Source of the DNA: Chitinophagales bacterium
Lineage (GTDB): Bacteria > Bacteroidota > Bacteroidia > Chitinophagales > UBA10324
DNA length: 64,000 bases
Direction of reading: 5' to 3'
Assembly (NCBI GenBank): GCA_013816805.1
Contig: JACDDS010000009.1
Coordinates: 62,001 to 126,000 of the forward strand
This document shows positions 13,723-34,326 of the stretch, piece by piece. The notes below the pieces were generated by a model. That model saw nothing but the letters and a program-made list of their open reading frames with translations. It was not told the origin of the DNA and did not search any database. Numbering within the stretch: position 1 is the stretch's first letter; each line of letters starts with the position of its first letter. The translations under genes were made by a program, and so were the position numbers.

Positions 13723-15606
13723 TTACTCCAACCCGCAAGCACAAGTAGTCACCTCCCTCGTTACCATGTAATCGCTGTTCTCCACCTGTATATGTGTAGT
13801 GCAAGGCATACACGGATCGAAGCTGCGAATGGCTCGTAAAATATCAATGCCCTTAAATTTTTTGTCTGGATTATTGATATCTGTATTTTCCAGGATGGGT
13901 GTATTTAATACAGCTTCTTCATAGGGACCGGGAGTGCCCCAGGGTGTATTAGGAGATGCATTTAATGAGGATGGGGTAAGTATCTGGTAATTGGAAATGG
14001 CGCCATCATCAATAATAAGATGATGCGTTAAAAAGCCACGACCGGCACCCCAAAAACCAACGCCTATTTGTGTACCTTTTTTAGGAATTGTGAAAGGTGT
14101 GCTCATGCTGGTTTCGCCTTTGCGCATTAGGTCTTGGGCCATGTACCAGTTGTCCAGCGCCACCAAGGCAGAATAAGGAATGCAGAAAGCTCTTGCCCTG
14201 TTGCGTTCAAAAGCATTCCATACTTCGGGAATGTGCCATTCCATTTCAGCAGCAGGTAAATTATGCTTGGGCATATGCAGTTTCATACTGTGCCCTGTGG
14301 GCTCTACAAATCTCCGGGATACAACTTTATTTGCTTTTGCAGTAATGTACAAACGGGCATAAGCACCTGCCTCTACGCTATTGCGATCCCATGTGGGGCA
14401 CGTATCCCATGTGTATCTGTCACGCCAGCTTTGTTTGCCAGGCTTGGCAATGGTTTCTTTGTTCCATGGATGATTGGGACTTAATGGTGTTCCTTCTATA
14501 TCTGTTTTAAAACGTTGTCCTTCCCATTTTTCGTAATAAGAATGTTCTACAAATTCTTCAAGCCCTGCATTAATCTGTTTAAGACTTGTAGTTACTAATT
14601 CACCATCAACCAAAACTCCCGGGGTTGACCAGCGTGCATTGCCCCATGTATCACAATTTTTAAAAGTAGCATCATAATAATCAGGGTGATCCCAAACTCC
14701 TGTCTCTATCATGGTTGCAGGGCGGGCACCTACCTTTGCATAGTCAGGATTACATTCAAGAAAGAAATCAAATACATCATCCCAAAGCCCAACTACTTTT
14801 TGCCCGTAGTCAAAGAATTTTATCAGGCGTTGATATAATTCATTCAATACAGTTATGTTCATAGTCACAGAAAGCCCTCCCGGGATAACCGATTGCGGAT
14901 GTGGATATTTACCACCGATCAATACATAAGCTTCACGGGCAACACGAGTCATTTCCAAAGCTTCAATATATAACTTCCCTGTAAGGGGATTAAGGTCATG
15001 CATAATATCGATCATCTTTTCATAACCATGAACCGCCTTGTTTTTTGCAGGAGTTGTTTTTGCTTTTTCAACAATTTCAGGATTTGTTTCGCTGGTTAAT
15101 TGCTCAGAATAATCCGGACCAGAAAGAAGAAATAAATGCAATGGATGATCGTATAAATATTCCAATGCAAGCAACATGTTGCGCATTACTATTGCTAATG
15201 GCGGCGGCTTTATATCCAGCGCCATTTCAATAGCAAGGGCAGAAACGGTTGAGTGCACACCTCCGCAAACACCACATGCACGGCTGCTGATATAAGCCGC
15301 ATCAAGTGGGCTTCTTCCTTTTAAAATAATTTCATATCCACGGAATAATGTTGCCATTGAATTGGAAGAAATAACTTTTTTATTTTCAAGATCAACAACA
15401 CTGTGAAAAGCAAGTGCACCGGCAATACGTGTTACCGGATCATAATCTACGTTTTTTAAATGTCCGTTCTTACCTAAAAGCTCTTTGAGCTTATCCTCAT
15501 GTTTACCCAGGTCAACAACTTCGTATGAATAAGGATTTGTTACTCCTTCTTTTAAAGTAGCTACGCCATTTTCATCAAATTCTATTGGAAGATTTTTAAA
15601 ACACAT
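13723..15606 (-). CDS. [NiFe]-hydrogenase large subunit (group 1h/1l, high-affinity uptake type)
   Basis: This is the catalytic subunit that oxidises H2 at a NiFe(CN)2CO centre. The 627 residues contain the N-terminal L1 motif RACGVCGGVH (Cys111, Cys114, His118) and the C-terminal L2 motif DPCMPCTTH (Cys599, Cys602, His605), giving all four Ni/Fe cysteines. After His605 a 22-residue tail remains, which the protease at 3618-4139 should cleave; the tail carries a CAC. Length and motifs fit the actinobacterial-type (group 1h, formerly 5) lineage and its Bacteroidota relatives (group 1l). The gene starts 10 bases after the last of five small membrane-protein genes. H2 scavenging from air is an inference from subgroup membership. 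Confidence 0.95.
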   Translation of the reverse strand: MCFKNLPIEFDENGVATLKEGVTNPYSYEVVDLGKHEDKLKELLGKNGHLKNVDYDPVTRIAGALAFHSVVDLENKKVISSNSMATLFRGYEIILKGRSPLDAAYISSRACGVCGGVHSTVSALAIEMALDIKPPPLAIVMRNMLLALEYLYDHPLHLFLLSGPDYSEQLTSETNPEIVEKAKTTPAKNKAVHGYEKMIDIMHDLNPLTGKLYIEALEMTRVAREAYVLIGGKYPHPQSVIPGGLSVTMNITVLNELYQRLIKFFDYGQKVVGLWDDVFDFFLECNPDYAKVGARPATMIETGVWDHPDYYDATFKNCDTWGNARWSTPGVLVDGELVTTSLKQINAGLEEFVEHSYYEKWEGQRFKTDIEGTPLSPNHPWNKETIAKPGKQSWRDRYTWDTCPTWDRNSVEAGAYARLYITAKANKVVSRRFVEPTGHSMKLHMPKHNLPAAEMEWHIPEVWNAFERNRARAFCIPYSALVALDNWYMAQDLMRKGETSMSTPFTIPKKGTQIGVGFWGAGRGFLTHHLIIDDGAISNYQILTPSSLNASPNTPWGTPGPYEEAVLNTPILENTDINNPDKKFKGIDILRAIRSFDPCMPCTTHIQVENSDYMVTREVTTCACGLE

Positions 15607-15616
15607 AATTTTTTGT

Positions 15617-15886
15617 TTACAATTTTAAAACTCCTGCAATAGCAGCAAGATGTTGATTTACTGATGACAAGCCTCCATGCAATGTACCTAATGCACCATT
15701 AATAGTCGTTAGCTTTTCTGCCAATGGCGCAGTATCGTTTTCTATTTTTTGTAAGCCGCCAGCCAATGCTTTTAAATGCGCTGCACCCCTAAATAAATAA
15801 ATGATAACCCCGGTAAGATATATAACCAGTACCAGTACAACAAGTACAACTACAATAATGGTGGCTATGAATAAATAATCTCCCAT
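15617..15886 (-). CDS. Small membrane protein 5 of the hydrogenase operon
   Basis: The 89-residue protein has one long N-terminal membrane helix (residues 5-35, rich in Val/Leu/Ile) and a soluble C-terminal segment with heptad-like hydrophobic spacing (LQKIENDTAPLAEKL, then GGLSSVNQHLAAI). The C-terminal part clearly resembles that of small membrane protein 3 (16184-16477): both read IE-x-(E/D)-T ... GL-xx-VN-x-HL-xx-I. It starts one base after the previous gene stops and precedes the large-subunit gene by 10 bases. It likely acts as a membrane anchor or stalk component of the hydrogenase; this is inferred from position. Confidence 0.85.
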   Translation of the reverse strand: MGDYLFIATIIVVVLVVLVLVIYLTGVIIYLFRGAAHLKALAGGLQKIENDTAPLAEKLTTINGALGTLHGGLSSVNQHLAAIAGVLKL

Positions 15887-15887
15887 A

Positions 15888-16181
15888 TCAATTAAATTTT
15901 GCGGCTCTTTCGGCCATGGTTACTTCAATGGTTTCGGCGTTACTGTTTATTTTTCCGGCACTGTCCAAAATATCAACAGCCACTTCTATTGTACTGTCTA
16001 ATGCAGGAATATAACCTGTGTTTCCTGCAATTCCCAAACCCGCTTCTTTCATCTCTCTTAAATATCTTTCTATATTTTTTGCAGCCATAAATGTTTTATG
16101 CAGCAGCCTTACAATAAAAGGAAATAAGATAAGCGCCACGGCTAACACAACTATCCAAAGAATATAAACGATGGTTGGCAT
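15888..16181 (-). CDS. Small membrane protein 4 of the hydrogenase operon
   Basis: The 97-residue protein has an N-terminal membrane helix (residues 4-27) followed by a basic stretch and an amphipathic helix. The C-terminal region (TGYIPALDSTIEVAVDIL, then GKINSNAETI) resembles that of small membrane protein 1 (HTAIDILNEADTILSNAGAV), so proteins 1, 2 and 4 form one paralogous set. The topology is probably N-out/C-in, from the positive residues after the helix. It lies 2 bases after gene 3 and 1 base before gene 5, consistent with coupled translation. Confidence 0.85.
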   Translation of the reverse strand: MPTIVYILWIVVLAVALILFPFIVRLLHKTFMAAKNIERYLREMKEAGLGIAGNTGYIPALDSTIEVAVDILDSAGKINSNAETIEVTMAERAAKFN

Positions 16182-16183
16182 AA

Positions 16184-16477
16184 TTAAATGATTTTTTGTT
16201 TTAGTGCCGCCTGAATGGTTCCTTCTAAATGTCCGTTCACTACTTTTAATCCGGCGCCTGTATTGGTTAATGTTTCATTGAGTTTAGTAACCTGCACAGG
16301 CAGGTGACCCGTTTCTGTTTCTATAGCTCGTAATCCTAATCTTAACTTGGCTAAAAAACTGTTTCCATTACCCCCAATATTCACAAGTAAATGATGAATG
16401 CCGATAACAAAATAGATTAATGCGCCAACAAAAAGCAAGACAAGTAAAACAGTTAATATCATTAATTGCGTGTACAT
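16184..16477 (-). CDS. Small membrane protein 3 of the hydrogenase operon
   Basis: The 97-residue protein has a membrane helix at residues 5-30, a Gly/Asn linker (GGNGNS) and a long C-terminal amphipathic helix (LRAIETETGHLPVQVTKL ...). It is the paralogue of small membrane protein 5. The second family therefore occupies positions 3 and 5 in an interleaved order with the first family (1, 2, 4). One base separates it from gene 2. I recognise no known domain; it may oligomerise through the C-terminal helix. Confidence 0.85.
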   Translation of the reverse strand: MYTQLMILTVLLVLLFVGALIYFVIGIHHLLVNIGGNGNSFLAKLRLGLRAIETETGHLPVQVTKLNETLTNTGAGLKVVNGHLEGTIQAALKQKII

Positions 16478-16478
16478 T

Positions 16479-16814
16479 TTATTTTGTTTTATTATGCTCT
16501 AATACACATGCAGGACAGCCGGGACAATGGCTTGCATGTTGCTCAATAGCTGCCGCGCCTCCAATAATTTTTACAGCGGTGTTATAAATTTTTGAAACCA
16601 CCTGGTTGGTTACCGTTAAATAAATTGGTATCTGAATGGTGTTGTTTGCAACTAATTTTCCTTCCGTCCATATCATATGTACTCCTGCTAAAATTTTTCT
16701 TGCCGTATTGCGAATAAGAATTAACAGGATGGCTACAACAATGGTAACAACCAGTCCCAATACGAGGCTAATTACCCAAACATTTGTGATTGCTTCTTCA
16801 CTTACATTTTGCAT
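16479..16814 (-). CDS. Small membrane protein 2 of the hydrogenase operon, with Cys-rich tail
   Basis: The 111-residue protein has a membrane helix (about 10-35), a segment NTIQIPIYLTVTNQVV that aligns with small membrane proteins 1 and 4, and a C-terminal metal-ligand cluster: HASHCPGCPACVLEH. This tail is unique among the five proteins and could hold a metal or Fe-S centre, or be redox-active. The start overlaps the stop of gene 1 by one base (TAATG). It probably sits with the tail in the cytoplasm, where it could contact the hydrogenase. Confidence 0.85.
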   Translation of the reverse strand: MQNVSEEAITNVWVISLVLGLVVTIVVAILLILIRNTARKILAGVHMIWTEGKLVANNTIQIPIYLTVTNQVVSKIYNTAVKIIGGAAAIEQHASHCPGCPACVLEHNKTK

Positions 16815-17107
16815 TACGATTGTTTTTCAGTTTCGTGTAATGCAGTTGCTACAGCGCCGGCATTACTTAAAATAGTATCAGCTTCATTCAAAATATCAAT
16901 AGCTGTATGATTTGTGTTTTGAAGTTCCCAGATGCTTAGGGTATTTTGTTTGATATTGATTACGATGCCCAATGCAGCTTGTGCAAGTTTTAGAATTCGC
17001 CTTGCAGCAATCAGTATAAGAATGAGCAGCGTTGCTGCAATTAATACAATGGCACCTGCTATTGCAAGTCCAATGTAAAACTCATTCCAATATGTTGCAT
17101 CGTTCAT
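16814..17107 (-). CDS. Small membrane protein 1 of the hydrogenase operon
   Basis: The 97-residue protein has a strong membrane helix (about 11-35, AIAGAIVLIAATLLILILIAA), then two arginines and an amphipathic region (NTLSIWELQNTNHTAIDIL) related to proteins 2 and 4. It starts one base after the small-subunit gene stops, so its translation is probably coupled to that subunit. A membrane-tethering role for the hydrogenase is the simplest idea. No database family is recognised by eye. Confidence 0.85.
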   Translation of the reverse strand: MNDATYWNEFYIGLAIAGAIVLIAATLLILILIAARRILKLAQAALGIVINIKQNTLSIWELQNTNHTAIDILNEADTILSNAGAVATALHETEKQS

Positions 17108-17108
17108 A

Positions 17109-18356
17109 CTATTTTTGTTTTACTTCTTTCATAGCTTCTTTGGAAGCCTTTTGAGTTTTTGGTTTAGAACCGGGACGCACACTATTGTGAAACTGAATTT
17201 TGCTATAAAAATAATGCGCTACTTTTTGCAATGTGCTTGCTTCTTCCACATGCCCCCAACCTGAAGGTACATGGTTATTTCTATTCCAGATAACACTTCT
17301 GTTTGCATACATCATAGAAAATCTCCGCAGGTTACGAATAAAATATCCCGTAGTTTTTGAGGTTGTTGAAGAAACAATAGTGCCCGGCGGCTTTGTATAA
17401 AATGGCGAAAAATTATCCGGAAATCCGGGCATGGTGCAACCGATACAGGGCGCACCCACATTCATACAACCACCTACATGATTAAGTGCGCCACGCTTAT
17501 TAATATTACATTGAACAACGGGACCCCAGCAGCCTATTTCAACCAGGCACTGTTTGTCACCAAAGCTTTTTGCAAATATGCCTTCTTCATAAAAGCCGCC
17601 ACGTGTACACGTTTGGTGGACGGTATCAGTAAACAGCCAGGCTGGTCTGCCGAGGCTGTCAAACTCCGGTAAAGGACCAATGCCCTGCAAAAACATTAGA
17701 ACAGCAGCAACAGTTTCTGTAAAATTATCACCCTGTGGTGCACATCCCGGAATGTTTACCACCGGCAATCCAAATGTGCTTCTGTAATTTTCTCCCAAAA
17801 AATCCATCAATCCCATTGAGCCGGTTACGTTGCCTGCAGCCGCAGGAATTCCTCCCCAGGTGGCGCAGGTACCAATGGCAATTACAGCGGCGGCATAAGG
17901 CGCCAGCAAAGCCATCATATCTGCAGTAGGAAAAGGTTGTTCTTCTCCATCCACCATACGCTTACCCAATGCTACCCAATAACCACCATTCTCATCATTT
18001 TTTCTTTCATCAGGAATTGATCCCTCATAAACAACCACAAATTGTTTTCCAAGCTTGCCCTGCATCGCTAAATGAAATGGCTCCATAAACTCATCACCAG
18101 CTTCAACTGATAAAACAGGATGATGTAAATTAATTCGTGGCAAACCCGGCATATTGCCCGTCATTAGGGCTTCCGCAGATGGAGCGGTAGCGCCTACAGT
18201 AGAAACAGAGCAGCCATCACAACTCATACCCGCCAGCCAGAAAACATGTATTTCATCAAGAGCATCTGCCTGCAATGTTGGCTGTGAAGTGCCATTGGTA
18301 TTGAATGGAGGCTGTGGAAAGTCTTTACCGTTTGATGCTTGTTGTAAGGAAACCAT
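17109..18356 (-). CDS. [NiFe]-hydrogenase small (Fe-S) subunit (group 1h/1l)
   Basis: The 415-residue subunit carries three Fe-S clusters that pass electrons away from the NiFe site. Proximal-cluster ligands are seen in MSCDGC (Cys46, Cys49), GTCATWGG (Cys164) and IPGCAPQGDN (Cys205). Further ligands are His247, Cys250, Cys270 and Cys276, then Cys283, Cys297, Cys304 and Cys307. There is no Tat signal (no RRxFxK) and no C-terminal membrane helix, unlike classical group 1 enzymes; both features fit the actinobacterial-type lineage and imply a cytoplasmic-side enzyme that needs separate membrane anchors. The basic C-terminus is Lys-rich. It is the first gene of the structural operon, divergent from tetR. 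Confidence 0.95.
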   Translation of the reverse strand: MVSLQQASNGKDFPQPPFNTNGTSQPTLQADALDEIHVFWLAGMSCDGCSVSTVGATAPSAEALMTGNMPGLPRINLHHPVLSVEAGDEFMEPFHLAMQGKLGKQFVVVYEGSIPDERKNDENGGYWVALGKRMVDGEEQPFPTADMMALLAPYAAAVIAIGTCATWGGIPAAAGNVTGSMGLMDFLGENYRSTFGLPVVNIPGCAPQGDNFTETVAAVLMFLQGIGPLPEFDSLGRPAWLFTDTVHQTCTRGGFYEEGIFAKSFGDKQCLVEIGCWGPVVQCNINKRGALNHVGGCMNVGAPCIGCTMPGFPDNFSPFYTKPPGTIVSSTTSKTTGYFIRNLRRFSMMYANRSVIWNRNNHVPSGWGHVEEASTLQKVAHYFYSKIQFHNSVRPGSKPKTQKASKEAMKEVKQK

Positions 18357-19118: not shown

Positions 19119-21452
19119 TTGAATAGAGTCAGCACCTGGCATATACACATCACAGGACAAGTACAGGGTGTTGGATTTCGCCCGTTCATATACCAGCTTG
19201 CCAAAAAATTCCAACTATCCGGTTGGGTAAGTAATAAAGATGACGGAGTTCACATGGAGTTCAATGCTGATAATGTGCTTTCAAAAAAATTTTATAAAGA
19301 AATATTAATTAATGCCCCGCAGTTATCTCATATTACTTCCCACATCCTTGAGGAAATTTCCCCCTTTACTTTTTCAGGGTTCAAAATTATTTCCAGCGGA
19401 AAAGCAGGCAATCCTATTCTTCTGATATCTCCTGACTTTGCTGTGTGTGTGAATTGCAAGAAAGAGATTGAGAATAAAACAAACCGTCGTTACAACTATG
19501 CTTTCACAACCTGTACCCAATGCGGCCCCCGTTATTCCATAATGAAAGATCTGCCGTATGATCGTGAAAATACTGTTATGGAAGTTTTTAAAATGTGCCC
19601 CACCTGCAATGCGGAGTATAGTGATCCAATGAACCGCAGGCATTTTTCACAAACCAATTCATGTCCGAATTGCGCTGTTGTAATGAAGTTATTCGATAAC
19701 AGAAAAGCTCCTATTGAGAACGACCAAGAAAATATCATCCAGAAGATATGTGAATACTGGAATGATGGAAAGATTGTGGCGATTAAAGGTATCGGTGGAT
19801 ACCTGCTCACATGTGATGCAACAAATGCAAACACCATAAAAGAATTACGATCCGGGAAACATCGTCCGGCAAAACCATTTGCATTGATGTTTCCTGATAT
19901 TCTTTCTTTAGAAGAGGAGGTTTACTTGAATGAAGCAGAAATTACTGAGTTAAAAAGTGTAGCAGCACCAATTGTGCTCTTGCACTTAAAAAATAAAAGC
20001 CCTTCAACTATTGCAGTACATGAAATTGCGCCGCGTCTTTCAAGAGTTGGAGTGATGCTTCCTTACACTCCCCTGTACGAATTGCTGCTTCAACAATTCA
20101 AAAAGCCAATTGTTGCCACTAGTGGAAACATCAGCAATGCACCTATAACTTTTGAAGATGAAAAGGCACTGTTTAATCTGAATTTTATTGCTGATTATAT
20201 ACTGGTTCATAACCGTGAAATTATTGCGCCACAGGATGACAGTGTGGTTACATACAGCCATTACTTCCAACACCGAATAATGCTTCGACGTGCAAGAGGT
20301 TTTGCTCCATTTTATCTCAATAAAAAATTGTCACTTACTGAAAAACCTATAATAGCAGCAGGTGCTATGATAAAGAGCACCTTTACTTTACTGCATCAAC
20401 AAAACATTCATATCAGCCAATACTTGGGCGACACAGATAATTATGATGCACAAAAAAATTATGAAAAAGCACTTCATCATTTTCTGCACCTCTTTCAGGC
20501 ACAACCCCAAGTTTTTTTAATAGATAAACATCCCGGTTATTTTACTTCACAATTTGGAGAACAACTTGCAACGAAATGGAATAACGAATTGGTCGCAGTG
20601 CAGCACCATGAAGCGCATTTTGCTTCGGTATTAGGTGAGCATAATTTAATCAATAAGCAGGCACCCATACTTGGCGTAATATGGGATGGAACAGGCTTTG
20701 GAAACGACGGACAAATTTGGGGCGGAGAGTTTTTTGTTTATCATCAACATCGCTTTATAAGGTTCACTCATTTTGATTATTTCAATTATTTCCTTGGTGA
20801 TATGATGGCAACCGAACCAAGGCTATCAGCTTTTTCTCTTTGTCATGAAATGGAAGAAGCAACATCTATTCTTCAACCAAAATTCTCACCGGAAGAATGG
20901 AAGAATTATCATCAACTAGTTAAAAAAAATAAACTCAAAACTTCCAGCATTGGGCGATTATTTGATGCAGTTGCTTCGCTGCTTGGTCTGATTGATAAGG
21001 CAAGCTTTGAAGGCGAAGCTGCCATGCTGCTGGAAGAAGAAGCGCATCATTATTTTAAAAGCGGACTAAACATTCCTGACGAATGGTTAGAGGAAGATGT
21101 ATGGAAGAGCGGTTTATCAACTCAAACATTAATAAAAGAAATTATAAGAAAGATTAATACAGGAAAGGAGAAATCTGAAATAGCTGCATGGTTTCATGTA
21201 CAACTTATTTTGGCAGTTAAAAAAGTTGCGACGCAAAACCTAACAGTTCTTGAAGACCAGTTAGGTTTACCGTTTCATAAAATCTGTTTCAGCGGAGGCG
21301 TTTTTCAAAATGGATTATTGGTTGACCTCTTGATTAGAATACTTGGAGTTCAATATCAACTATATTTCAACAGGGAACTATCTCCAAATGATGAAAACAT
21401 TTCTTTCGGACAGTTGGTTAGATATGGAATAGGAGATATGAAATATGAATGA
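19119..21452 (+). CDS. hypF: Carbamoyltransferase HypF, hydrogenase maturation
   Basis: HypF uses carbamoyl phosphate and ATP to make the cyanide ligands of the NiFe site, passing a carbamoyl group to HypE. The 777 residues contain an N-terminal acylphosphatase domain (GQVQGVGFRPFIYQLA), two zinc fingers (CVNC...CTQCG and CPTC...CPNC, about 105-185), a YrdC-like domain (about 200-385, GKHRPAKPFALM), and a Kae1-like domain with the metal motif HHEAHFASV. The start is TTG at 19119; the acylphosphatase domain begins at once, so no later start is possible. The last codons lie in an 18-base inverted repeat that borders the following element. Confidence 0.96.
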   Translation: MNRVSTWHIHITGQVQGVGFRPFIYQLAKKFQLSGWVSNKDDGVHMEFNADNVLSKKFYKEILINAPQLSHITSHILEEISPFTFSGFKIISSGKAGNPILLISPDFAVCVNCKKEIENKTNRRYNYAFTTCTQCGPRYSIMKDLPYDRENTVMEVFKMCPTCNAEYSDPMNRRHFSQTNSCPNCAVVMKLFDNRKAPIENDQENIIQKICEYWNDGKIVAIKGIGGYLLTCDATNANTIKELRSGKHRPAKPFALMFPDILSLEEEVYLNEAEITELKSVAAPIVLLHLKNKSPSTIAVHEIAPRLSRVGVMLPYTPLYELLLQQFKKPIVATSGNISNAPITFEDEKALFNLNFIADYILVHNREIIAPQDDSVVTYSHYFQHRIMLRRARGFAPFYLNKKLSLTEKPIIAAGAMIKSTFTLLHQQNIHISQYLGDTDNYDAQKNYEKALHHFLHLFQAQPQVFLIDKHPGYFTSQFGEQLATKWNNELVAVQHHEAHFASVLGEHNLINKQAPILGVIWDGTGFGNDGQIWGGEFFVYHQHRFIRFTHFDYFNYFLGDMMATEPRLSAFSLCHEMEEATSILQPKFSPEEWKNYHQLVKKNKLKTSSIGRLFDAVASLLGLIDKASFEGEAAMLLEEEAHHYFKSGLNIPDEWLEEDVWKSGLSTQTLIKEIIRKINTGKEKSEIAAWFHVQLILAVKKVATQNLTVLEDQLGLPFHKICFSGGVFQNGLLVDLLIRILGVQYQLYFNRELSPNDENISFGQLVRYGIGDMKYE

Positions 21453-21458
21453 TGAAAT
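21441..21458 (+). repeat. Left inverted repeat of the IVP-like element
   Basis: AAATATGAATGATGAAAT is the exact reverse complement of two copies at 21914-21931 and 21975-21992. It overlaps the last codons and stop of hypF. Confidence 0.75.
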
Positions 21459-21480
21459 AAAATAGTCAAACTCCCTTAAC

Positions 21481-21839
21481 ATGAAAGAAAATATAATCAT
21501 TACTAAATCTTTTCAATTTGCGATTAAGATTGTTAAGCAATATAAAATACTCTGTGAAATCAAAAGAGATACGTTTTGAGCAAACAAATGCTTCGGTCGG
21601 GAACATCAATAGGAGCAAATGTAAGAGAAGCTCATAATGCGGAGAGTAAAATGGATTTTATTCATAAAATGGGAATAGCCCAAAAAGAAGCTTCTGAAGT
21701 AATCTACCGGATAGAGCTTTTATACGAAACAGAATATTTAACCAAAGAAGAATACCATTCCCTTTCAAATGATGCTACCGAACTAATAAAGATTATCAGG
21801 AGTATAATTCTATCCTCCAAACAAAACCTGAAAAAATAA
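21481..21839 (+). pseudogene. Frameshifted four-helix-bundle protein (23S rRNA intervening-sequence protein family)
   Basis: The ATG at 21481 opens MKENIIITKSFQFAIKIVKQ ... and runs to a TGA at 21577. The rest of the family sequence (YVLSKQMLRSGTSIGANVREA ... LIKIIRSIILSS) continues in the -1 frame to 21839. The switch falls near 21568-21570; one base is missing relative to an intact frame, or a -1 slip at that point would restore it. Joined, the product is about 119 residues, the usual length of this family (IVP/S23/Avd-like). No reverse transcriptase is nearby, so this is not a diversity-generating retroelement. It sits between hypF and hypC inside inverted repeats and has no apparent role in hydrogenase maturation. 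Confidence 0.8.
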
Positions 21840-21913
21840 TAAATATGAGTATGAAATAATAAATATGAAATATGAAACAACACCGTTAAAAATTGGTAAT
21901 TTACATTGATAAC

Positions 21914-21992
21914 ATTTCATCATTCATATTTAACCATAACTCATATTTAATCATGACTCAATTTCATAACTCATATTTCATCATTCATATTT
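21914..21992 (+). repeat. Right inverted repeats (two copies) of the IVP-like element
   Basis: ATTTCATCATTCATATTT occurs at 21914-21931 and again at 21975-21992, each an exact inverse of the left copy at 21441-21458. AACTCATATTT also repeats between them. The stretch 21840-21999 holds no gene, only these AT-rich direct and inverted repeats, and it ends at the hypC start codon. Confidence 0.75.
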
Positions 21993-21999
21993 AAACAAC

Positions 22000-22323
22000 A
22001 TGTGCTTAGCCATTCCCGGTAGAATAAAATCAATCGAACCTTTTAAAGAAGGTTATATGAGTATGGGTAAAGTGGAATTGGGTGGAATTATTAAAGAAAT
22101 TAACTTACAATTGGTACCTGATGCAAAAGAAAACGATTATGTGCTGGTTCACGTAGGTGTAGCCATAAGCATTGTTGATGAAGAAGAAGCCAAAAGCTCT
22201 CTCAAATTTTTAGAACAAATGAATGAACTGGATGAATTATATAACACTGCGGAAGATAATGAAATCACAAAAGAAGAAAGAGTAAAACAGGGTGATGATA
22301 TCATTTCAAAAATGATCCCATGA
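22000..22323 (+). CDS. hypC: Hydrogenase maturation chaperone HypC
   Basis: This small chaperone of 107 residues carries the Fe(CN)2CO unit with HypD and hands it to the large-subunit precursor. The required N-terminal cysteine is present (MCLAIPGRI), followed by the OB-like core (GGIIKEINLQLVPD, DYVLVHVGVAISIVDEEEA). The acidic C-terminal extension is longer than in E. coli HypC. Its stop overlaps the hypD start (22320-22323, ATGA), so the two are translationally coupled. Confidence 0.95.
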   Translation: MCLAIPGRIKSIEPFKEGYMSMGKVELGGIIKEINLQLVPDAKENDYVLVHVGVAISIVDEEEAKSSLKFLEQMNELDELYNTAEDNEITKEERVKQGDDIISKMIP

Positions 22324-23432
22324 AATACTTAACCGAATACCGCGACCCGGTCTTGGCAGCACAATACCTGGATGAGATAAAAAAAACAGTCACCCGTCCA
22401 TGGACGATCATGGAGGTCTGTGGCGGGCAAACGCATAGTCTGGTGAAGTACGGCCTGCTTCAGATGCTGCCTAAAGAAATTACCATGGTTCATGGCCCTG
22501 GTTGTCCGGTTTGTGTTACACCAACTCATCTCATTGACAGGGCTGTTTTTTTGGCTAAGCAAAGCAATATCATCATGTGTTCGTTTGGTGATATGCTACG
22601 AGTACCAGGTTCTGAAAAAAGCTTGTTGCAGGCAAAAGCCGAAGGTGCTGATGTTCGCATCTTATACTCGCCTCTGGAAGCGGTAAATCTGGCGCAGCAA
22701 AATCCGGATAAGGAGGTTGTATTTTTTGCTGTAGGCTTTGAAACCACTGCTCCTGCGAATGCTTTATCGGTTATACAGGCACATCAATTGGGATTAAAAA
22801 ATTATTCAATCATTGCTTCGCATGTGTTGGTACCACCGGCTATGGAAGCTTTATTAAGCGACCCTGAAACCGTTGTTCAGGCTTTTTTAGCTGCCGGTCA
22901 TGTTTGCACCATTATGGGCAACAGTGAATACTATCCTATCGTAGAAAAATATAAAGTGCCAATAGTAGTTACCGGTTTTGAACCGATAGATTTGTTGCAC
23001 GGAATATTAATGGTGGTACGGCAACTTGAAAAAGGCGAATACAAAATGGAGAATCAATACGCAAGAGTAGTTCGTGAAAGAGGTAATCTTTCTGCCCAGG
23101 AAGCTATCAAGGAAATTTTTGAAATAAGCAATCGTATGTGGCGTGGCATGGATATTATTCCGCACAGTGGACTGGAAGTAAAAGAAAAGTATGCAGCTTT
23201 CGATGCTACCCAAAAATTTAATGTACCATTAAAAGAGACTAAAGAAAATGAAAGTTGTATTGCCGGTGCCATCATGAAAGGATTAAGAAAACCGTTGGAC
23301 TGCATCAACTTTGGAACTGCCTGCAAGCCTTCCCATCCCCTCGGTGCACCAATGGTTTCATCCGAAGGTTCCTGCGCTACCTACTATCATTTTTATTCCG
23401 CGTTAAACGAAGTTGAAAAAGTGGAAGTTTAG
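22320..23432 (+). CDS. hypD: Hydrogenase maturation factor HypD
   Basis: HypD is an Fe-S protein that assembles Fe(CN)2CO together with HypC. The 370 residues show MEVCGGQTHS (first conserved Cys), HGPGCPVCVTP (the redox pair), GFETTAPA, and a Cys-rich C-terminal region for the [4Fe-4S] cluster (ESCIAGAIMKG, PLDCINFGTAC). The length is normal. It is coupled to hypC and followed 93 bases later by hypE. Confidence 0.96.
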   Translation: MKYLTEYRDPVLAAQYLDEIKKTVTRPWTIMEVCGGQTHSLVKYGLLQMLPKEITMVHGPGCPVCVTPTHLIDRAVFLAKQSNIIMCSFGDMLRVPGSEKSLLQAKAEGADVRILYSPLEAVNLAQQNPDKEVVFFAVGFETTAPANALSVIQAHQLGLKNYSIIASHVLVPPAMEALLSDPETVVQAFLAAGHVCTIMGNSEYYPIVEKYKVPIVVTGFEPIDLLHGILMVVRQLEKGEYKMENQYARVVRERGNLSAQEAIKEIFEISNRMWRGMDIIPHSGLEVKEKYAAFDATQKFNVPLKETKENESCIAGAIMKGLRKPLDCINFGTACKPSHPLGAPMVSSEGSCATYYHFYSALNEVEKVEV

Positions 23433-23525
23433 AATCTTCAGCGTGTTAAAAAGGACAACACAAATTATTGACAGGAATGTTTCAGGCTTTAGACAGGCAA
23501 TGTTCAATATCTTCTAAACATATCT

Positions 23526-24599
23526 ATGTTAGAAACAGAACTTCAAAATAGAAAAATAAAAATGCAGCTCCAGTGCCCTATGCCTCCACTGGACTTTGAC
23601 ATTATCACTCTGGGACATGGAAGCGGCGGGGTGTTAACCCATAACCTGCTAAATACGGGTGTATTTGATATTTTAAAAAATGATTACCTGAACCAACATC
23701 ATGATGGCGCATTTCTGCAATTGAAAAATCCTGTGGCCTTTTCAACCGATAGCTTTGTGATCACACCAATATTTTTCCCTGGTGGAAATATCGGTGACTT
23801 AGCAGTGAATGGAACTCTCAACGATCTAGCAATGTGTGGCGCCATGCCGCGCTATTTTTCCTTGAGTTTTATTATTGAAGAAGGATTAACAATGAAAGAA
23901 TTTTGGGACATTCTGGTTTCTATCAAATTTGCCTGTGAAGAAGCCAATGTAAAAGTGGTGACCGGCGATACCAAAGTAGTAGAAAGGGGAAAGGGTGATA
24001 AAATCTTTGTGAATACAAGCGGCATTGGTGAATTACATCCTAAAGCGAAAATTGCAGCGGCAAATATCAGAGCCGGCGACAAAATAATTGTAAGCGGAAA
24101 TGTGGCTACTCATGGAGTTGCTATCATGTCAGTAAGGGAAGGATTGGTTTTTGAAACAGAATTAGAAAGTGATACCTGCAACCTTGCCCCGGCGGTAAAT
24201 AATTTATTGGATCTTTTTGGAGAAGAAATTCTTTTTTTGCGTGACCCCACTAGAGGTGGTGTGGCAACGGTTTTAAATGAATTGGCAAAAGATAGTGGGC
24301 TTGGTATTGACCTTTTGCAAAATTTAATCCCTTTAAGCGAACAGGTTGAAGGTGCTTGTGAAATGTTAGGACTAGATCCATTATATGTTGCCAATGAAGG
24401 GATTTTTATAACCGCAGTTTCAGCAGAAATTGCAGATCGGGTAGTAGATGTTTTAAAGGCTATGGACACAGGTAAAAATGCAGCAATTATTGGTTCAGTA
24501 ACCGCCGATCATCCGAAGCAGGTAATTTTAACAAGCAGTATAGGGGGAAGAAGAATGCTGAATATGCTTACCGGAGAACAGTTACCACGAATTTGCTGA
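23526..24599 (+). CDS. hypE: Hydrogenase maturation factor HypE
   Basis: HypE is an ATP-dependent dehydratase that turns the carbamoyl group on its C-terminal cysteine into thiocyanate for the cyanide ligands. The 357 residues begin with ITLGHGSGGVLTHNL, contain the ATP-binding segments of the PurM/ThiL superfamily (FSTDSFVI, LRDPTRGGVATVLNE), and end in the required PRIC. An ATG 14 codons downstream (MQLQCPMPP) could also start the protein. There is no hypA or hypB beside it. Confidence 0.95.
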   Translation: MLETELQNRKIKMQLQCPMPPLDFDIITLGHGSGGVLTHNLLNTGVFDILKNDYLNQHHDGAFLQLKNPVAFSTDSFVITPIFFPGGNIGDLAVNGTLNDLAMCGAMPRYFSLSFIIEEGLTMKEFWDILVSIKFACEEANVKVVTGDTKVVERGKGDKIFVNTSGIGELHPKAKIAAANIRAGDKIIVSGNVATHGVAIMSVREGLVFETELESDTCNLAPAVNNLLDLFGEEILFLRDPTRGGVATVLNELAKDSGLGIDLLQNLIPLSEQVEGACEMLGLDPLYVANEGIFITAVSAEIADRVVDVLKAMDTGKNAAIIGSVTADHPKQVILTSSIGGRRMLNMLTGEQLPRIC

Positions 24600-26486: not shown

Positions 26487-26525
26487 TAAACTTTAAAGTT
26501 GCTTTATAAAAAATCACCACGTATT

Positions 26526-27293
26526 ATGAAAATTGCAGTTTGCGGAAAGGGGGGCGTTGGGAAAACCACGATCAGTGGAATGCTATGTCGACTGCTTGGA
26601 AGAAGCGGAATGCCTGTGCTTGCTATAGATGGTGATCCCAATCCGAATCTTGCACTCATTCTTGGAATAGATCCTCTAGCTCCATCCCCTCCTGCACTAA
26701 GCACAGATTTATTGGAGGTTACTGAAAAAGAAGATGGAAAAAGATACGCAACCCTTGGAGTATCACTGCAGGAAGTAATGGACACTTATGGATTGAAGGC
26801 GCCTGATAATGTCACGCTGCTCGCTGTTGGTCAACCCGAGCATGCGGCCACAGGTTGCATGTGTGGCTTACACACTACTGTAAGGGAAATTGTTCATTCT
26901 GCGTTGGAAGAAAGCGATCGTGTTACCGTCCTTGATCTGGAAGCATCCCTGGAGCAGATGAAGCGTGGCACTTCAAAATATGTTGACATACTTTTGTGTG
27001 TTGTGGAACCATACTATCGTTCATTAGAGGCTGCTGCAAGGTTTTACCGATTAGGAAAAGAACTCGGAATAAAAAAAATAGTCGCTGTTGCAAACAAGGT
27101 AAAAAATGCAGAAGACGAAAAAGCAATCCGCGAATTTTTCGCTCAGATTGATTTGCCAGTTGAAGCTATTATTCCTTATGATGAAGAACTAGCAGCGACC
27201 GATGCCAAAGGAATTTCTGTGTTAAATAATAATTATTCTTCTCCCGCAATCGTTGCGTTGACTGAATTGGCTAACAGGTTATTGTTAAATTAA
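26526..27293 (+). CDS. CooC-like nickel-insertion ATPase
   Basis: The 255-residue P-loop NTPase belongs to the MinD/SIMIBI class. It has the deviant Walker A GKGGVGKTT at residues 7-15, DGDPNPNLA, and Cys111-Met-Cys113 in a position matching the metal-binding CxC of CooC (which inserts nickel in CO dehydrogenase). I start it at the ATG at 26526 because the family begins MKIAVxGKGG; the frame is open nine codons further. No CO dehydrogenase gene lies in the window. Since hypA and hypB are missing beside hypCDEF, this ATPase may deliver nickel to the hydrogenase; that is an inference from context. Confidence 0.85.
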   Translation: MKIAVCGKGGVGKTTISGMLCRLLGRSGMPVLAIDGDPNPNLALILGIDPLAPSPPALSTDLLEVTEKEDGKRYATLGVSLQEVMDTYGLKAPDNVTLLAVGQPEHAATGCMCGLHTTVREIVHSALEESDRVTVLDLEASLEQMKRGTSKYVDILLCVVEPYYRSLEAAARFYRLGKELGIKKIVAVANKVKNAEDEKAIREFFAQIDLPVEAIIPYDEELAATDAKGISVLNNNYSSPAIVALTELANRLLLN

Positions 27294-27360: not shown

Positions 27361-29215
27361 TTAAGCTTTAATTGAAAGCATTCTTGCATTAACAGCGACA
27401 ACTATGGTGCTTAAACTCATTAAAATTGCACCTGTTGCAGGGCTTAACATTATTCCCCGATTGTATAATACTCCCGCCGCCAAGGGTAAGGCTATGATAT
27501 TGTATCCTGTTGCCCACGCTAAATTTTGAATCATTTTTTTGTAGGTTGCCTTGCCAAACAAAATTAAGCTTGCAATGTCTTTCGGATTACTGTTAACTAA
27601 AATTATTCCCGCTGTTTCGGCGGCTATGTCGCTTCCGCTTCCTACTGCGATACCAATATCAGCTTGCGCAAGTGCAGGTGCATCGTTCACACCGTCACCG
27701 GTCATCGCAACAAATTCTCCTTTGGCTTGCAGCTCTTTTATCTTTTCTAATTTCTGATGCGGAAGAACTTCAGCAAAAAATCCGTCCATCTTTAATTGGT
27801 CACTTACACTCTTCGCAACTTTTGCATTATCACCTGTGAGAAGAAATGATTTGATGCCGTTCTTATGAAGTGTTTCAATTGCAGGCACTGACTCGTCACG
27901 AATTTTATCGGCTAGAGCAATGTATCCGGCTATGGTCTCATTGATGATTAAGAAGACCACTGTTTCCGATTCTGCTGACTGAAAATTTTCTGGCAGGGAT
28001 AATTTGTTTTCTTTCAGGTAGCCGGGGCTTACCACTTTTACTTGCTTCCCCTCCACTTCTGCCTGCACACCTTTGCCGGTTATGGATTGGAAATTTTCTA
28101 TTTTGGGAAGAGAAGTTTTTTGCTCTTTCGCTTTCTCTATAATTCCTGTTGCAATTGGGTGTTGCGAATTCTTTTCCAATGCAGCAGCAAGGCGTATGAT
28201 TTCATTTTCCGGAAGTCCTTTTTGAAATGCTACCACTCTTGCCACTTCAAATTTTCCGAATGTGAGCGTTCCTGTTTTGTCGAAGATGAGCGTGGTAATC
28301 TTTCTTGAATTTTCAAATGCAGTTCTATTTTTTATAAGCAATCCGTTTTTTGCAGCAAGCGAAGTGGAGATTGCAACTACTAACGGCACTGCTAGACCGA
28401 GGGCATGAGGACAACTAATCACGATCACCGTTACCATTTGTTCAATTGCAAATTGCAGTGATTGTCCTGCGAACATCCAGAATGCAAAAGTTCCGAAATC
28501 TAATGTCAATGCGATGATGGTAAGTACAAGTGCCGCTCTGTCAGCAAGCAGTTGTGTCTTTGATTTTGATTTCTGCGCATCGTCAACCAGCTTAATTACT
28601 TTCGAAAGATAAGAATCCTTTGAGGCGTGACTTACTTTTAATTTTAATGAACCTTCGCCATTCAATGCACCTGCAATCAGTTTATCGCCAACAGATTTTT
28701 TTACCGGAACACTTTCACCCGTAAGCATCGATTCATTTACATAACTTTCTCCTTCACTCAAAACTCCATCGGCAGCAATTTTATCTCCGGGCTTTATGAG
28801 GATAATATCACCTTCTTTCAGGGTACCTGTTTTTACATCACTTGTTTCATTTCCTTTTACCAAGTGCGCAACATCGGGATTAATGATGCCATCTCCCAGA
28901 AAAAATCTTCTCCCTTTAAATCAAACACGGTTGCTGCGCTGTATATGTAAGCTGCCGAAATAGCAATTGCAATTAGTATCATCATTCCCAGCGAACGGTT
29001 TTTTACTTCATTCCAAAATCCTTTCAGAAAAGGAAAACCACCATAGAAGAAAACGATAGAAGAAAGTGCAAAGGCAACATATTGCGAACCCGGAAATTGC
29101 CAGTTCACACCAACCAATTTTTGAAGCAATCGGAGATAAAGCCATCACGGGAATGTTGATACCAATAGCAATAAAAAATTTCAATTTAAAATCTGCAATC
29201 ATTTTGTGATGATCA
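27361..29215 (-). pseudogene. Decayed copper-type P1B ATPase (CopB-like, CPH class)
   Basis: The main frame (27361-28863, 500 codons) keeps TGES, the CPH metal motif (SCPHALGLAVPLV), DKTGT, the HP motif (NSQHPIAT), TGDN and GDGVNDAPAL. Upstream, the N-terminal half is damaged: HHKMIADFKLKFFIAIGI (29150-29210) and VNWQFPGSQYVAFAL (28870-29129) lie in different frames. A junction near 28870 joins EDFFWEMASLI directly to PDVAHLVKG, so roughly 35 residues that include part of the second membrane pair are deleted. The His-rich N-terminus is also gone. The intact class exports Cu(I)/Cu(II) or Ag(I); this copy should not work as a pump, although the long 3' frame may still be expressed. Confidence 0.8.
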
Positions 29216-31121: not shown

Positions 31122-33854
31122 TTAGTAAACAAAAGTAACTCCTGCACCCACACCCATATCGCTGTCGAAATGTGATGAAATGGAAATGTATTTGGTGGCG
31201 ATATATCTTAACCCAACCATGTATTCTTTATCAGTATTAATCATCCAGTTAAAACGCAAACGCGGTGTAACAGATAAATCTTCTCTTGATAACTGAAAAC
31301 GAAACTTTCCATTTCCATCAACCCTGAAATCAGCAACGGTTAATGTGGGTAAAGTATAGGCAACACCTGCTGTTACAGTATGGCGATTGTCTTTATTGCT
31401 TACTTGTCCAAACAAATTTTTTGTCTCGCTGCCAAATATATTTTTTTGAGTGCCGTGTAAATCAAAAATGTTTTTTGCAAATGCCCCTTCCTTTTTATAA
31501 TGATAATCGAAACCAACATAAGGATACAACCATTGCATTCTTCCAAAGTAGCGCCCAATCATGGTTTCGCTTTCATAGCCGTGTTCATCATGATAGCCTA
31601 AATGCCATAGTGTGCTTGCCTTCCAGCGTGTTTGGGCAAGCATAAATTCGCCGTCGCTGCCGTTACTTTCTATACCAACCTTGCCCATAGGATGAAACAT
31701 TTTGTCGTCAGAATTTAAGCCACGCTTAGCCACTTTGGAGCTGGTAATATCAGTAATTGCCGATGAATCTATACTTGCCGAATCTGCCTTAGTGGGTGAA
31801 TTTTTGTAGCTGAAAACCCTGCCCATGCCGCTCATCATGTGGTATAAAATATGGCAATGAAAAAACCAGTCGCCGCCAGCTTCACCGGCATAAAATTCAA
31901 TAGTATCCCGCTCCATCGGCATGATGTCAATAATGTTTTTCATGGGTGCGTAATCACCCTGCCCGTTCAGCACTCTAAAATCATGACCATGCAGGTGCAT
32001 GGGATGCCGCATCATGCTGTTGTTGAATAAAACTATTCTTATTCTTTCTCCTTTTTTTATAAGAATTTTATCGCTTTCAGAAACTACTTTATTGTCAAGG
32101 CTCCATACATAACGGTTCATGTTTCCCGTTAAATCGAATTTCAATTCTTTCCAGGGTCCATCAGGCAAAGTTGTTTTTTCAGTTGAACGCAACATGCCAT
32201 AATTGAGCGTAACTATATCAGAGCTTTCACTTGCCATATTCATGCCTTGCATACTGTTGTTATTGGGCATTTGCATGTTATGTCCCTGCATATTATCTTT
32301 TTTAGATTTACTCATGTCCATCTTTTTCATGCCGTCCATTTTATCCTGCTTCATATCTTTCATGTCATGATCTTGATGCGTTGAATCATTTTTCATCTTA
32401 TCCATTTCCATATTTTTCATATCATCCATATTCATTTCTTTACCAGGTTTTTCTTCGCCTGTTATTTCAGGATACATTACCGTGTTCATATCCATAACCT
32501 GGTTAGCCATTTGCATGCCTTCCATCTCTATCATATTGCCTTTCATATCCATCATGTCATTCATCATTTTCATGCCGGCAAAATATTTAAGCTTAGGCAA
32601 TCTTGTTGCGGGCACTTTTTCTCCGCTGCCCAACCATAAAGAAGCTGATTTTGTACGGTCTTCAGGCGTTATCAAAAATTCATAACTTTTATTTTCGGGT
32701 ACTGTTACCACCACATCATAAGTTTCAGAAACTGCAATAAGCAACCTGTCAACTTCTACGGGCTCTACATCATTACCATCACTGGCTACTACCGTAATCT
32801 TACCACCCGAATAAGTAAGCCAAAAATAATCTGATGCACCGCCGTTGGCTATGCGTAATCTTACTTTATCACCTGCCTTAAATTGGGGTTGTTCATTTTG
32901 ATTTTTACCATTAATTAAAAAGTTATCGTAGTACACGTCACTTACATCCATTGCATTCATACGCTTCCACTCATTGGTAAGCTTAGTCTTTAAATTACCG
33001 CTTTTTATAGCCTCTGTATAGTTTTGCGTAGTTCCTTTTTCTATGGCAAACCAATCAGTAGCACTGCGCAGGCTGCGGTGAACTTCTTCGGGTTTCATAT
33101 CCGTCCATTCGCTTAGCACCACCGGTATAGTTGGTATATCCCATTCTTTTCTTTTATTCATGATAAAAGAGCCATACATACCTATCTGTTCCTGTAATTT
33201 GCTATGACTATGATACCAATGCGTACCATGCTGAACAATGGGATATTTATAGAGGTAAGTAGAATGAGGCTTAATAGGCATTTGTGTCAAGAAAGGCACT
33301 CCATCCATTCGGTTGGGTAAAAACAATCCATGCCAATGCAAGGAAGTTTCTTCATTCAATTCATTATGGACATAAATTTCCGCCGTATCGCCTTCTGTAA
33401 ACGTAAGGGTTGGCATTGGTATCTGACCATTTACCGCAATAGCCCTTTTAGGCTTTTTGCCATAAGTAACAGTAGTATCCCTTATATATAAATCGTAACG
33501 AACAGTACGAGGTGGCAACTTACTTTCAATAAGTTTATACCCCATATTTCTATCTGTTAGTTTTTTACCCGTTTGCATATCATTCATGTTGTCCATCTTC
33601 ATTGTATCTTTCATCGGCATCTTGATATCCATCTCCGTTTGATTTTTTTGTAAAGGCAATGTGTCTTTCAATATTTGCAGATCATCATGTTTTTCCTGCA
33701 GTACATTAGACTTTTCGATTTTTTTTGCATTTGATGGCTTAACCGTCTGTGATTTTGGGCTTTCCATTTTCATTCCCGGCATATTCATATCATTCTGGGC
33801 AAATGCAAACAGATATAAGAATAATGTACAGGCTATTAAGAATATTCGTTTCAT
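31122..33854 (-). CDS. Multicopper oxidase (CopA/PcoA-like) fused to a CopB-like outer-membrane domain
   Basis: The ATG at 33854 gives a signal peptide (MKRIFLIACTLFLYLFAFAQ) and 910 residues. The oxidase part has the type 1/2/3 copper sites: LHWHGL, HWYHSHS, HPMHLHG and WFFHCHILYHMMSGM. Met/His-rich insertions (NMPGMKM at the start, then a long stretch around residues 430-550 with many MDM/MKNMEM/HDM) would bind copper. After the last copper motif about 170 residues follow that resemble the beta-rich PcoB/CopB copper-resistance domain (MGKVGIESNG, YPYVGFDYHY, FVY at the end). It should oxidise Cu(I) in the periplasm or at the outer membrane. The open frame upstream of 33854 overlaps the haem-domain gene and is rejected. 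Confidence 0.9.
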   Translation of the reverse strand: MKRIFLIACTLFLYLFAFAQNDMNMPGMKMESPKSQTVKPSNAKKIEKSNVLQEKHDDLQILKDTLPLQKNQTEMDIKMPMKDTMKMDNMNDMQTGKKLTDRNMGYKLIESKLPPRTVRYDLYIRDTTVTYGKKPKRAIAVNGQIPMPTLTFTEGDTAEIYVHNELNEETSLHWHGLFLPNRMDGVPFLTQMPIKPHSTYLYKYPIVQHGTHWYHSHSKLQEQIGMYGSFIMNKRKEWDIPTIPVVLSEWTDMKPEEVHRSLRSATDWFAIEKGTTQNYTEAIKSGNLKTKLTNEWKRMNAMDVSDVYYDNFLINGKNQNEQPQFKAGDKVRLRIANGGASDYFWLTYSGGKITVVASDGNDVEPVEVDRLLIAVSETYDVVVTVPENKSYEFLITPEDRTKSASLWLGSGEKVPATRLPKLKYFAGMKMMNDMMDMKGNMIEMEGMQMANQVMDMNTVMYPEITGEEKPGKEMNMDDMKNMEMDKMKNDSTHQDHDMKDMKQDKMDGMKKMDMSKSKKDNMQGHNMQMPNNNSMQGMNMASESSDIVTLNYGMLRSTEKTTLPDGPWKELKFDLTGNMNRYVWSLDNKVVSESDKILIKKGERIRIVLFNNSMMRHPMHLHGHDFRVLNGQGDYAPMKNIIDIMPMERDTIEFYAGEAGGDWFFHCHILYHMMSGMGRVFSYKNSPTKADSASIDSSAITDITSSKVAKRGLNSDDKMFHPMGKVGIESNGSDGEFMLAQTRWKASTLWHLGYHDEHGYESETMIGRYFGRMQWLYPYVGFDYHYKKEGAFAKNIFDLHGTQKNIFGSETKNLFGQVSNKDNRHTVTAGVAYTLPTLTVADFRVDGNGKFRFQLSREDLSVTPRLRFNWMINTDKEYMVGLRYIATKYISISSHFDSDMGVGAGVTFVY

Positions 33855-33858
33855 AAAT

Positions 33859-34326
33859 TTAATTCGGTTGTGAAAGGCTTTCTTTAGTTTTATTGATCCA
33901 ATCCAATACGGATGTTTTTTGAGTTTTTGTAAGTTTTGCATTCTTGTGAATTATTGCATATGCAGGAATAGGCATTGATTCATCATCGATGCTTCGGGCC
34001 ATTTCCCGCAATTTGTTTCGTTGCATGCGTTTCGAATAATTTCCAAACTGACTGAAATTCAGATTTTCTTTTCCATTCTTTATATGAGATGCCATCCACC
34101 AGCCGCCTGGCTGAATACAGGAGTACCAGGGATAACGGGTATAGTTGCTGTGACAGTCATAACAGGAGTTTTTAAAAATATCCAATATCCCATCAGGCAC
34201 TGAAACTATTCTGGCAATATCCGTTGATAAAACCTGCCCGTTATTATTATTACGGGCAGGCTGTATAAATTGAACTGCTATAAATAAAATCACTAATGCC
34301 AGAATTACTTTTTTTATGCGGCTCAT
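33859..34326 (-). CDS. Haem-binding domain protein (cytochrome-like CxxCH)
   Basis: The 155-residue protein has an N-terminal membrane anchor or signal (residues 5-23) and a single haem-c motif CYDCH with nearby YPWYS and PGGWWMASHI, the pattern of the Haem_bd (PF14376-type) family of Bacteroidota. MPIPAYAIIHKNA follows. It is periplasmic and probably binds one haem c. Its stop lies 5 bases before the start of the multicopper oxidase, so they share a transcript. Electron delivery to or from the copper proteins is possible but unproven. Confidence 0.85.
   Translation of the reverse strand: MSRIKKVILALVILFIAVQFIQPARNNNNGQVLSTDIARIVSVPDGILDIFKNSCYDCHSNYTRYPWYSCIQPGGWWMASHIKNGKENLNFSQFGNYSKRMQRNKLREMARSIDDESMPIPAYAIIHKNAKLTKTQKTSVLDWINKTKESLSQPN

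What the first reader, a model, noticed from the sequence alone, without database searches (positions are those of the whole stretch)
15617..17107. Five small membrane proteins of two interleaved families between the hydrogenase subunit genes
Seen: between the small-subunit gene (17109-18356) and the large-subunit gene (13723-15606) five genes of 89-111 codons are packed with gaps of -1 to 2 bases. Each has one N-terminal membrane helix and a soluble amphipathic tail. Proteins 1, 2 and 4 share NT...I..L...T...I; proteins 3 and 5 share IE.(E/D)T ... GL..VN.HL..I. So two families are interleaved as 1-2-3-4-5 = A-A-B-A-B. Known: group 1h subunits lack Tat signals and membrane helices, and the Huc enzyme uses a separate membrane stalk (HucM); I recall Bacteroidota group 1l clusters with small membrane proteins between the subunits. 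Inference: these proteins form an oligomeric anchor or quinone tunnel built from two protein types.
Basis: partly seen in the sequence, partly recalled or inferred. Interest (0 to 1): 0.85.

Follow-up and report, generated by a model that had tools for sequence, protein, structure and literature searches.

The report
Five-part membrane anchor of H2 hydrogenase
Five tiny membrane proteins, already reported as a hallmark of a bacterial enzyme that burns hydrogen gas from air, prove to be copies of two protein types whose five-member set is kept beside the enzyme across several bacterial phyla, so they are probably how the enzyme is tied to the membrane.

Summary
Observation confirmed. Five ORFs (97, 111, 97, 97, 89 codons; [quoted passage not shown] The gene set is already published as HylTM1-5 (Ray et al. 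2022, citing Ortiz et al. 2021).

The A-A-B-A-B split holds: profiles made without the window or Hymenobacter score proteins 1/2/4 at 82-96 bits (A) versus 1-22 for 3/5, and 3/5 at 97-98 (B) versus at most 11 for the rest.

Not found in the held literature: the five are conserved orthogroups (TM1, 2, 4 = A; TM3, 5 = B). The same operon occurs in Bacteroidota, Proteobacteria, SAR324, Rhodothermaceae and Chloroflexia. Actinobacterial relatives whose gene content fits group 1m mostly keep 3A+2B in two separate blocks. Other Chloroflexota have 2A+2B; one MAG has only TM2+TM3. Four group 1h loci have none.

The subunits lack twin-arginine signals and the genome lacks a hydrogenase cytochrome b, so these proteins are the best candidate for the membrane/menaquinone link. 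A quinone-conducting stalk like HucM is plausible but unproven; no homology to HucM was detected.

The parts
17109..18356 (-). Hydrogenase small subunit (HylS, group 1l), no twin-arginine motif
   Evidence: Pfam PF14720 and PF01058; 87% identical to H. roseosalivarius; no Tat motif
16814..17107 (-). HylTM1, family A: one N-terminal membrane helix and amphipathic tail
16479..16814 (-). HylTM2, family A: one N-terminal membrane helix, modelled helices 6-59 and 62-96, C-terminal Cys motif
16506..16538 (-). H-x3-C-P-G-C-P-x-C motif in the TM2 tail, a possible metal or Fe-S site (untested)
   Evidence: Present in all eight TM2 of the Bacteroidota/Proteobacteria/SAR324/Rhodothermaceae clade, absent in Chloroflexia
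16184..16477 (-). HylTM3, family B: modelled helices 2-36, 41-56, 59-96
15888..16181 (-). HylTM4, family A
15617..15886 (-). HylTM5, family B
13723..15606 (-). Hydrogenase large subunit (HylL)
   Evidence: Pfam PF00374 E 7e-71; 91% identical to H. roseosalivarius; the only [NiFe] large subunit in the genome
3660..4064 (-). HycI/HybD-type hydrogenase maturation protease domain (probable maturation factor)
   Evidence: PF01750 E 3.5e-18, the only match in the genome
18482..19108 (+). TetR-family regulator lying between the divergent hydrogenase and hyp genes
19119..24599 (+). Maturation genes read from the ORF sequences as hypF (19119-21452), hypC (22000-22323), hypD (22320-23432) and hypE (23526-24599)
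   Evidence: ORFs; names from sequence recognition, not from a profile search
26499..27293 (+). CooC-like P-loop ATPase
   Evidence: PF01656 CbiA E 1e-17

Best explanation
The seven genes are the operon of a cytoplasmic high-affinity group 1l hydrogenase (HylS-TM1-TM2-TM3-TM4-TM5-HylL). The five small proteins are paralogues of two types (A: TM1, TM2, TM4; B: TM3, TM5), each with one N-terminal membrane helix and a cytoplasmic amphipathic helical tail. Most likely they assemble as a mixed A/B bundle: the membrane helices anchor it, and the tails form a helical stalk that docks HylSL near its distal Fe-S cluster, so that electrons from H2 reach menaquinone without a cytochrome b. Shown here by computation: gene structure, two families, five conserved orthogroups, linkage to this hydrogenase clade, no Tat signals, no hydrogenase cytochrome b in the genome, and predicted helical shapes. 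Inferred: assembly, docking, topology and quinone reduction. How quinone reaches the enzyme (through a hydrophobic lumen as in HucM, or because the enzyme is held at the membrane surface) is undecided.
For: Both families and all five orthogroups travel with the hydrogenase across phyla; 3A+2B copies per genome are mostly kept even where the operon is split in Actinobacteriota. Absent from four group 1h loci, and strong matches in 294 Bacteroidota genomes occur only in the window's genome, the only one in a near-identical sample with HylS. No Tat motif in HylS or HylL, no PF01292 cytochrome b in a genome estimated 100% complete. Tails have heptad-like periodicity of 3.4-3.5 residues and charge bias favouring a cytoplasmic tail. 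AlphaFold2 gives long helices with confident pLDDT. Precedent: Huc is tied to the membrane by a helical stalk, HucM (PMC10017518).
Against: No physical interaction is shown. The monomer models have low pTM (0.37-0.39) and say nothing about assembly. The charge bias holds in only 77-79% of proteins. No solved relative exists. A different, unlinked electron acceptor cannot be excluded; other membrane redox proteins of the genome were not surveyed. In Actinobacteriota the TM genes are not in the hydrogenase transcription unit.
Confidence: 0.6

Rival explanations
1. Quinone conduit (a narrower form of the best explanation): the mixed A/B bundle is a hollow tube that takes menaquinone out of the membrane to HylS, working like the HucM stalk though not related to it by sequence.
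For: Amphipathic heptad tails; the B profile's best PDB sequence matches are designed helical bundles and barrels, a hint from composition only; HucM precedent.
Against: No complex model; [quoted passage not shown] lumen and number of subunits unknown.
Confidence: 0.35
2. Assembly or maturation factors: the HylTMs help build or insert the enzyme and are not subunits of the mature complex.
For: In Actinobacteriota they are encoded apart from the subunit genes, divergently and near maturation genes.
Against: In several phyla they sit between the two structural genes with near-zero spacing; no catalytic or chaperone domain is recognised; a set of five paralogues would be unusual for maturation factors.
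Confidence: 0.12
3. Electron relay through TM2: the H-x3-CPGCPxC tail binds an Fe-S cluster or other metal that passes electrons from HylS towards the membrane.
For: The motif is conserved in all eight TM2 of one clade.
Against: It is absent from TM2 of Chloroflexia, which have the same five-gene operon, so it cannot be essential to the shared mechanism; a structural Zn site is as likely.
Confidence: 0.1

Closest known systems
HylTM1-5 of the group 1l [NiFe] hydrogenase (Ray et al. 2022, PMC9561532, citing Ortiz et al. 2021)
   Same: Same hydrogenase group, same place between the subunit genes, same number of short predicted membrane proteins.
   Different: No difference in the window itself. 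The two-family structure, the five orthogroups and the actinobacterial and Chloroflexota variants are not mentioned in the passages found.
[quoted passage not shown] 2022)
   Same: Similar size; the actinobacterial loci here have TM4-TM5 orthologues of 72-95 aa near the hydrogenase.
   Different: Reported as having no identifiable domains; subunit genes adjacent. Identity with TM4/TM5 is my inference, and TM1-3 are encoded divergently.
HucM of the group 2a hydrogenase Huc (PMC10017518)
   Same: Helical membrane-associated partner of a cytoplasmic high-affinity hydrogenase that lacks a cytochrome b; amphipathic helices.
   Different: HucM is a single 188-residue protein forming a tetramer whose tube end touches the membrane; HylTMs are five 89-111 residue proteins each with a membrane helix; no sequence or fold match found.
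Hydrogenase cytochrome b (HyaC/HoxZ type, PF01292)
   Same: Provides the membrane and quinone link of classical group 1 uptake hydrogenases (established knowledge).
   Different: Haem-binding multi-helix protein working with Tat-exported subunits; none in this genome and no Tat motif here.

Membership tests
Group 1l hydrogenase cluster (hylS-hylTM1-5-hylL) | Five short TM proteins between small and large subunit genes | tested here: met
Group 1l hydrogenase cluster (hylS-hylTM1-5-hylL) | Subunits phylogenetically separate from group 1h | tested here: met
   Trees rooted with four group 1h loci; no curated 1l reference set was used
Group 1l hydrogenase cluster (hylS-hylTM1-5-hylL) | High-affinity, atmospheric H2 oxidation | not testable with these tools
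   Needs activity measurement; reported for the group, not for this organism
Group 1m hydrogenase (for the actinobacterial relatives, not the window) | Adjacent subunit genes, HybD peptidase, FeS assembly protein, CooC ATPase, TPR protein, BirA, DUF1059, two small TM proteins | tested here: inconclusive
   In Amycolatopsis marina adjacent subunits, HycI protease, NifU, CooC-like ATPases, TPR and two small TM proteins found; BirA and DUF1059 not seen among the genes scanned
HucM stalk family | Sequence or fold relation to HucM | tested here: not met
   No HucM among PDB profile matches up to E 10 for A, nor among the 60 shown of 212 for B; no Foldseek match for TM2 or TM3
HucM stalk family | Forms an oligomeric tube holding the hydrogenase | not testable with these tools
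   No complex prediction available
Classical cytochrome-b-linked group 1 hydrogenase | PF01292 cytochrome b in the genome and Tat motif on the small subunit | tested here: not met

The most novel reading that the evidence does not exclude
The A/B proteins form a hetero-oligomeric, quinone-extracting helical stalk that evolved independently of HucM, is shared by group 1l and 1m hydrogenases, and was elaborated by gene duplication around a TM2+TM3 core into a five-part assembly in which every position is filled by its own paralogue.
Probability: 0.33. Interest if true: 0.8.

Novelty: new member of a known kind. Interest (0 to 1): 0.55.

Why it matters
How cytoplasmic high-affinity hydrogenases of groups 1h, 1l and 1m pass electrons from air-level H2 to the respiratory chain is, as far as I found, not settled. 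This narrows the question for 1l and probably 1m to a defined module of two protein types, points to the smallest natural version (TM2+TM3) to express with HylSL, predicts that group 1h uses something else, and flags the small ORFs that must be included when such enzymes are expressed or modelled.

Tried and rejected
Pfam and NCBIfam give only sub-cut-off noise for the five proteins. PDB sequence searches with TM3 alone and with both family profiles found no natural relative, only coiled coils and designed bundles; Foldseek against the PDB found nothing for either model. Iterated A and B profiles merged because of shared TM/coiled-coil composition, so I classified with non-iterated and out-of-sample profiles. 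A and B may be distant paralogues (hhalign 96.6%), but position-by-position comparison supports this only for TM1-TM5 (93%; the rest at most 43%), so I do not rely on it. Weak B hits in 11 other Bacteroidota genomes (21-28 bits) are treated as coiled-coil noise. Housekeeping-family, Tat-exported and cytochrome-b explanations were rejected. Literature searches found no structure of a group 1l complex, and the Ortiz et al. paper itself is not held; the library is incomplete.

Full report
Observation. The five ORFs exist exactly as described, on the minus strand between the hydrogenase small subunit (17109-18356) and large subunit (13723-15606), with gaps of -1 to 2 bases and 10 bases before the large subunit. 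Each has one hydrophobic N-terminal segment. No Pfam or NCBIfam model reaches its cut-off for any of them.

What the enzyme is. The subunits are clear [NiFe] hydrogenase subunits. The closest locus found among GTDB species genomes is Hymenobacter roseosalivarius (small subunit 87%, large 91% identical). In trees rooted with group 1h loci from Cupriavidus necator, Mycobacterium, Streptomyces and Embleya, the window falls in a well-supported clade of loci with five interposed genes. This fits group 1l: Ray et al. 2022 (PMC9561532; its reference 24 is Ortiz et al. [quoted passage not shown] So the gene set itself is known. [quoted passage not shown]

Two families. I built family profiles from nine loci, leaving out the window and Hymenobacter. 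The A profile scores window proteins 1, 2, 4 at 82, 96, 94 bits and proteins 3, 5 at 1 and 22; the B profile scores 3, 5 at 98 and 97 and the rest at most 11; the best of 1000 half-wise shuffled sequences scores 14. Pairwise BLASTP inside the window gives 1-4, 1-2 and 3-5 at E 6e-5 to 3e-4 and no other pair below 0.04. Profile-profile comparison joins 1-2-4 (97-98%) and 3-5 (99%).

Survey. Among 44 related loci the order A-A-B-A-B recurs in Bacteroidota, Luteimonas, Rhizobiaceae, SAR324, Rhodothermaceae and Chloroflexia/Thermomicrobiales. Five other Chloroflexota loci have four interposed genes A-B-A-B, and one Chloroflexia MAG (L045) has two, A-B. In Actinobacteriota the subunit genes are adjacent, but the same proteins lie divergently upstream as A-A-B, with an A-B pair several kilobases away, or in a block A-A-A-B. 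Profiles for each of the five positions identify these as TM1-2-3 plus TM4-5, or TM1-4-2-3; the four-gene Chloroflexota as TM2-5-4-3; L045 as TM2-3. A tree of the A proteins recovers TM1 (23 of 24 sequences, support 94), TM2 (29 of 29, support 85) and TM4 (24 of 25, support 69) as groups that mix five-gene and actinobacterial loci; the B proteins are less well resolved. Position labels in that test come from the best-scoring profile, so profile and tree are not fully independent. Whole-genome searches of 30 hydrogenase-bearing genomes count three A and two B in five-gene genomes and in most actinobacterial ones, two A and two B in most of the four-gene ones, and one and one in L045. Exceptions: three actinobacterial genomes with one B, several with extra copies (G310, G314, G316, G317), G304 with a third weak B hit that overlaps its A gene, and two loci cut by contig ends (L007, L015). 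MAG incompleteness could explain low counts, L045 above all, since its contig is only 3.2 kb; its two genes do however lie directly between the small and large subunit genes.

Specificity. Four group 1h loci have no A or B match. Across 294 Bacteroidota genomes the A and B profiles give strong hits only in the window's genome, and in a near-identical sample of 297 HylS is found only there. Sampling was even across the phylum, so this shows rarity and linkage, not absence elsewhere.

Link to group 1m. Ray et al. describe group 1m (Actinobacteriota, adjacent subunits) with HybD peptidase, an FeS assembly protein, a CooC-type ATPase, a TPR protein, BirA, DUF1059 and two small single-TM proteins of 82-92 aa. 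The Amycolatopsis marina locus has a HycI protease, NifU, CooC-like ATPases, a TPR protein and the TM4-TM5 pair. I infer that the actinobacterial clade is group 1m, that its two reported small proteins are TM4 and TM5, and that TM1-3 are encoded divergently. BirA and DUF1059 were not seen among the genes scanned, so the assignment is probable, not proved.

Structure. AlphaFold2 with 66 A or 56 B sequences models TM2 as helices 6-59 and 62-96 (pLDDT 84) and TM3 as helices 2-36, 41-56 and 59-96 (pLDDT 89); pTM is low, as expected for lone helices. Both break near residues 57-61, next to the conserved Thr. Tails have a 3.4-3.5 residue hydrophobic period, and positive charge is greater after than before the TM in 77-79% of proteins, favouring a cytoplasmic tail. 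Foldseek finds no PDB match.

Mechanism. HylS and HylL have no twin-arginine motif, and the genome, 100% complete by the tool's estimate, has a single [NiFe] hydrogenase and no hydrogenase cytochrome b. The enzyme is therefore expected in the cytoplasm and needs another way to reach the quinone pool; the HylTMs are the membrane proteins seen to travel with it across phyla. The precedent is Huc, whose HucM tetramer forms a hydrophobic tube that brings menaquinone to the enzyme (PMC10017518). HylTMs may work alike but are not HucM family members by any test here. Retention of separate TM1-5 orthogroups even where the operon is split suggests that each fills its own place in one assembly; the TM2+TM3 locus suggests the core.

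Extra motif. TM2 carries a C-terminal H-x3-C-P-G-C-P-x-C in all eight loci of the Bacteroidota/Proteobacteria/SAR324/Rhodothermaceae clade but not in Chloroflexia. It could bind Zn or an Fe-S cluster; nothing here tests that.

Verdict. Observation confirmed; interpretation partly supported. The gene set is known; the two-family, five-orthogroup structure and its extension to probable group 1m clusters are, within the held literature, undescribed.

Noticed in passing
window 16506-16538 (minus): HylTM2 ends in H-x3-CPGCPxC, a candidate metal or Fe-S site conserved in one clade of group 1l clusters and missing in Chloroflexia.
   Followed up: partly
L045:584-1229: A Chloroflexia MAG has only TM2+TM3 between the hydrogenase subunits, the smallest version found; short contig, so it needs checking.
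   Followed up: partly
L028:3307-5533: A Solirubrobacteraceae MAG carries two tandem four-gene TM1-4-2-3 blocks divergent from its hydrogenase.
   Followed up: no
L035:824-3482 and L029:491-1348: Long proteins with an N-terminal hydrophobic segment and many repeats such as SINxTAG lie near Thermoleophilaceae hydrogenases and match the A/B profiles weakly; they may be giant relatives or coincidental coiled coils.
   Followed up: no
L047:8968-10023, L048:9004-10059, L049:8929-10017: Group 1h hydrogenase small subunits are annotated in public plasmid records as 'hydrogenase expression protein HypE', which looks like a naming error.
   Followed up: no
window 31122-33941 (minus): A very Met/His-rich multicopper-oxidase-like protein of 939 aa, close to a metal P-type ATPase (27361-28863), looks like a copper-resistance island beside the hydrogenase cluster (read from sequence only).
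   Followed up: no
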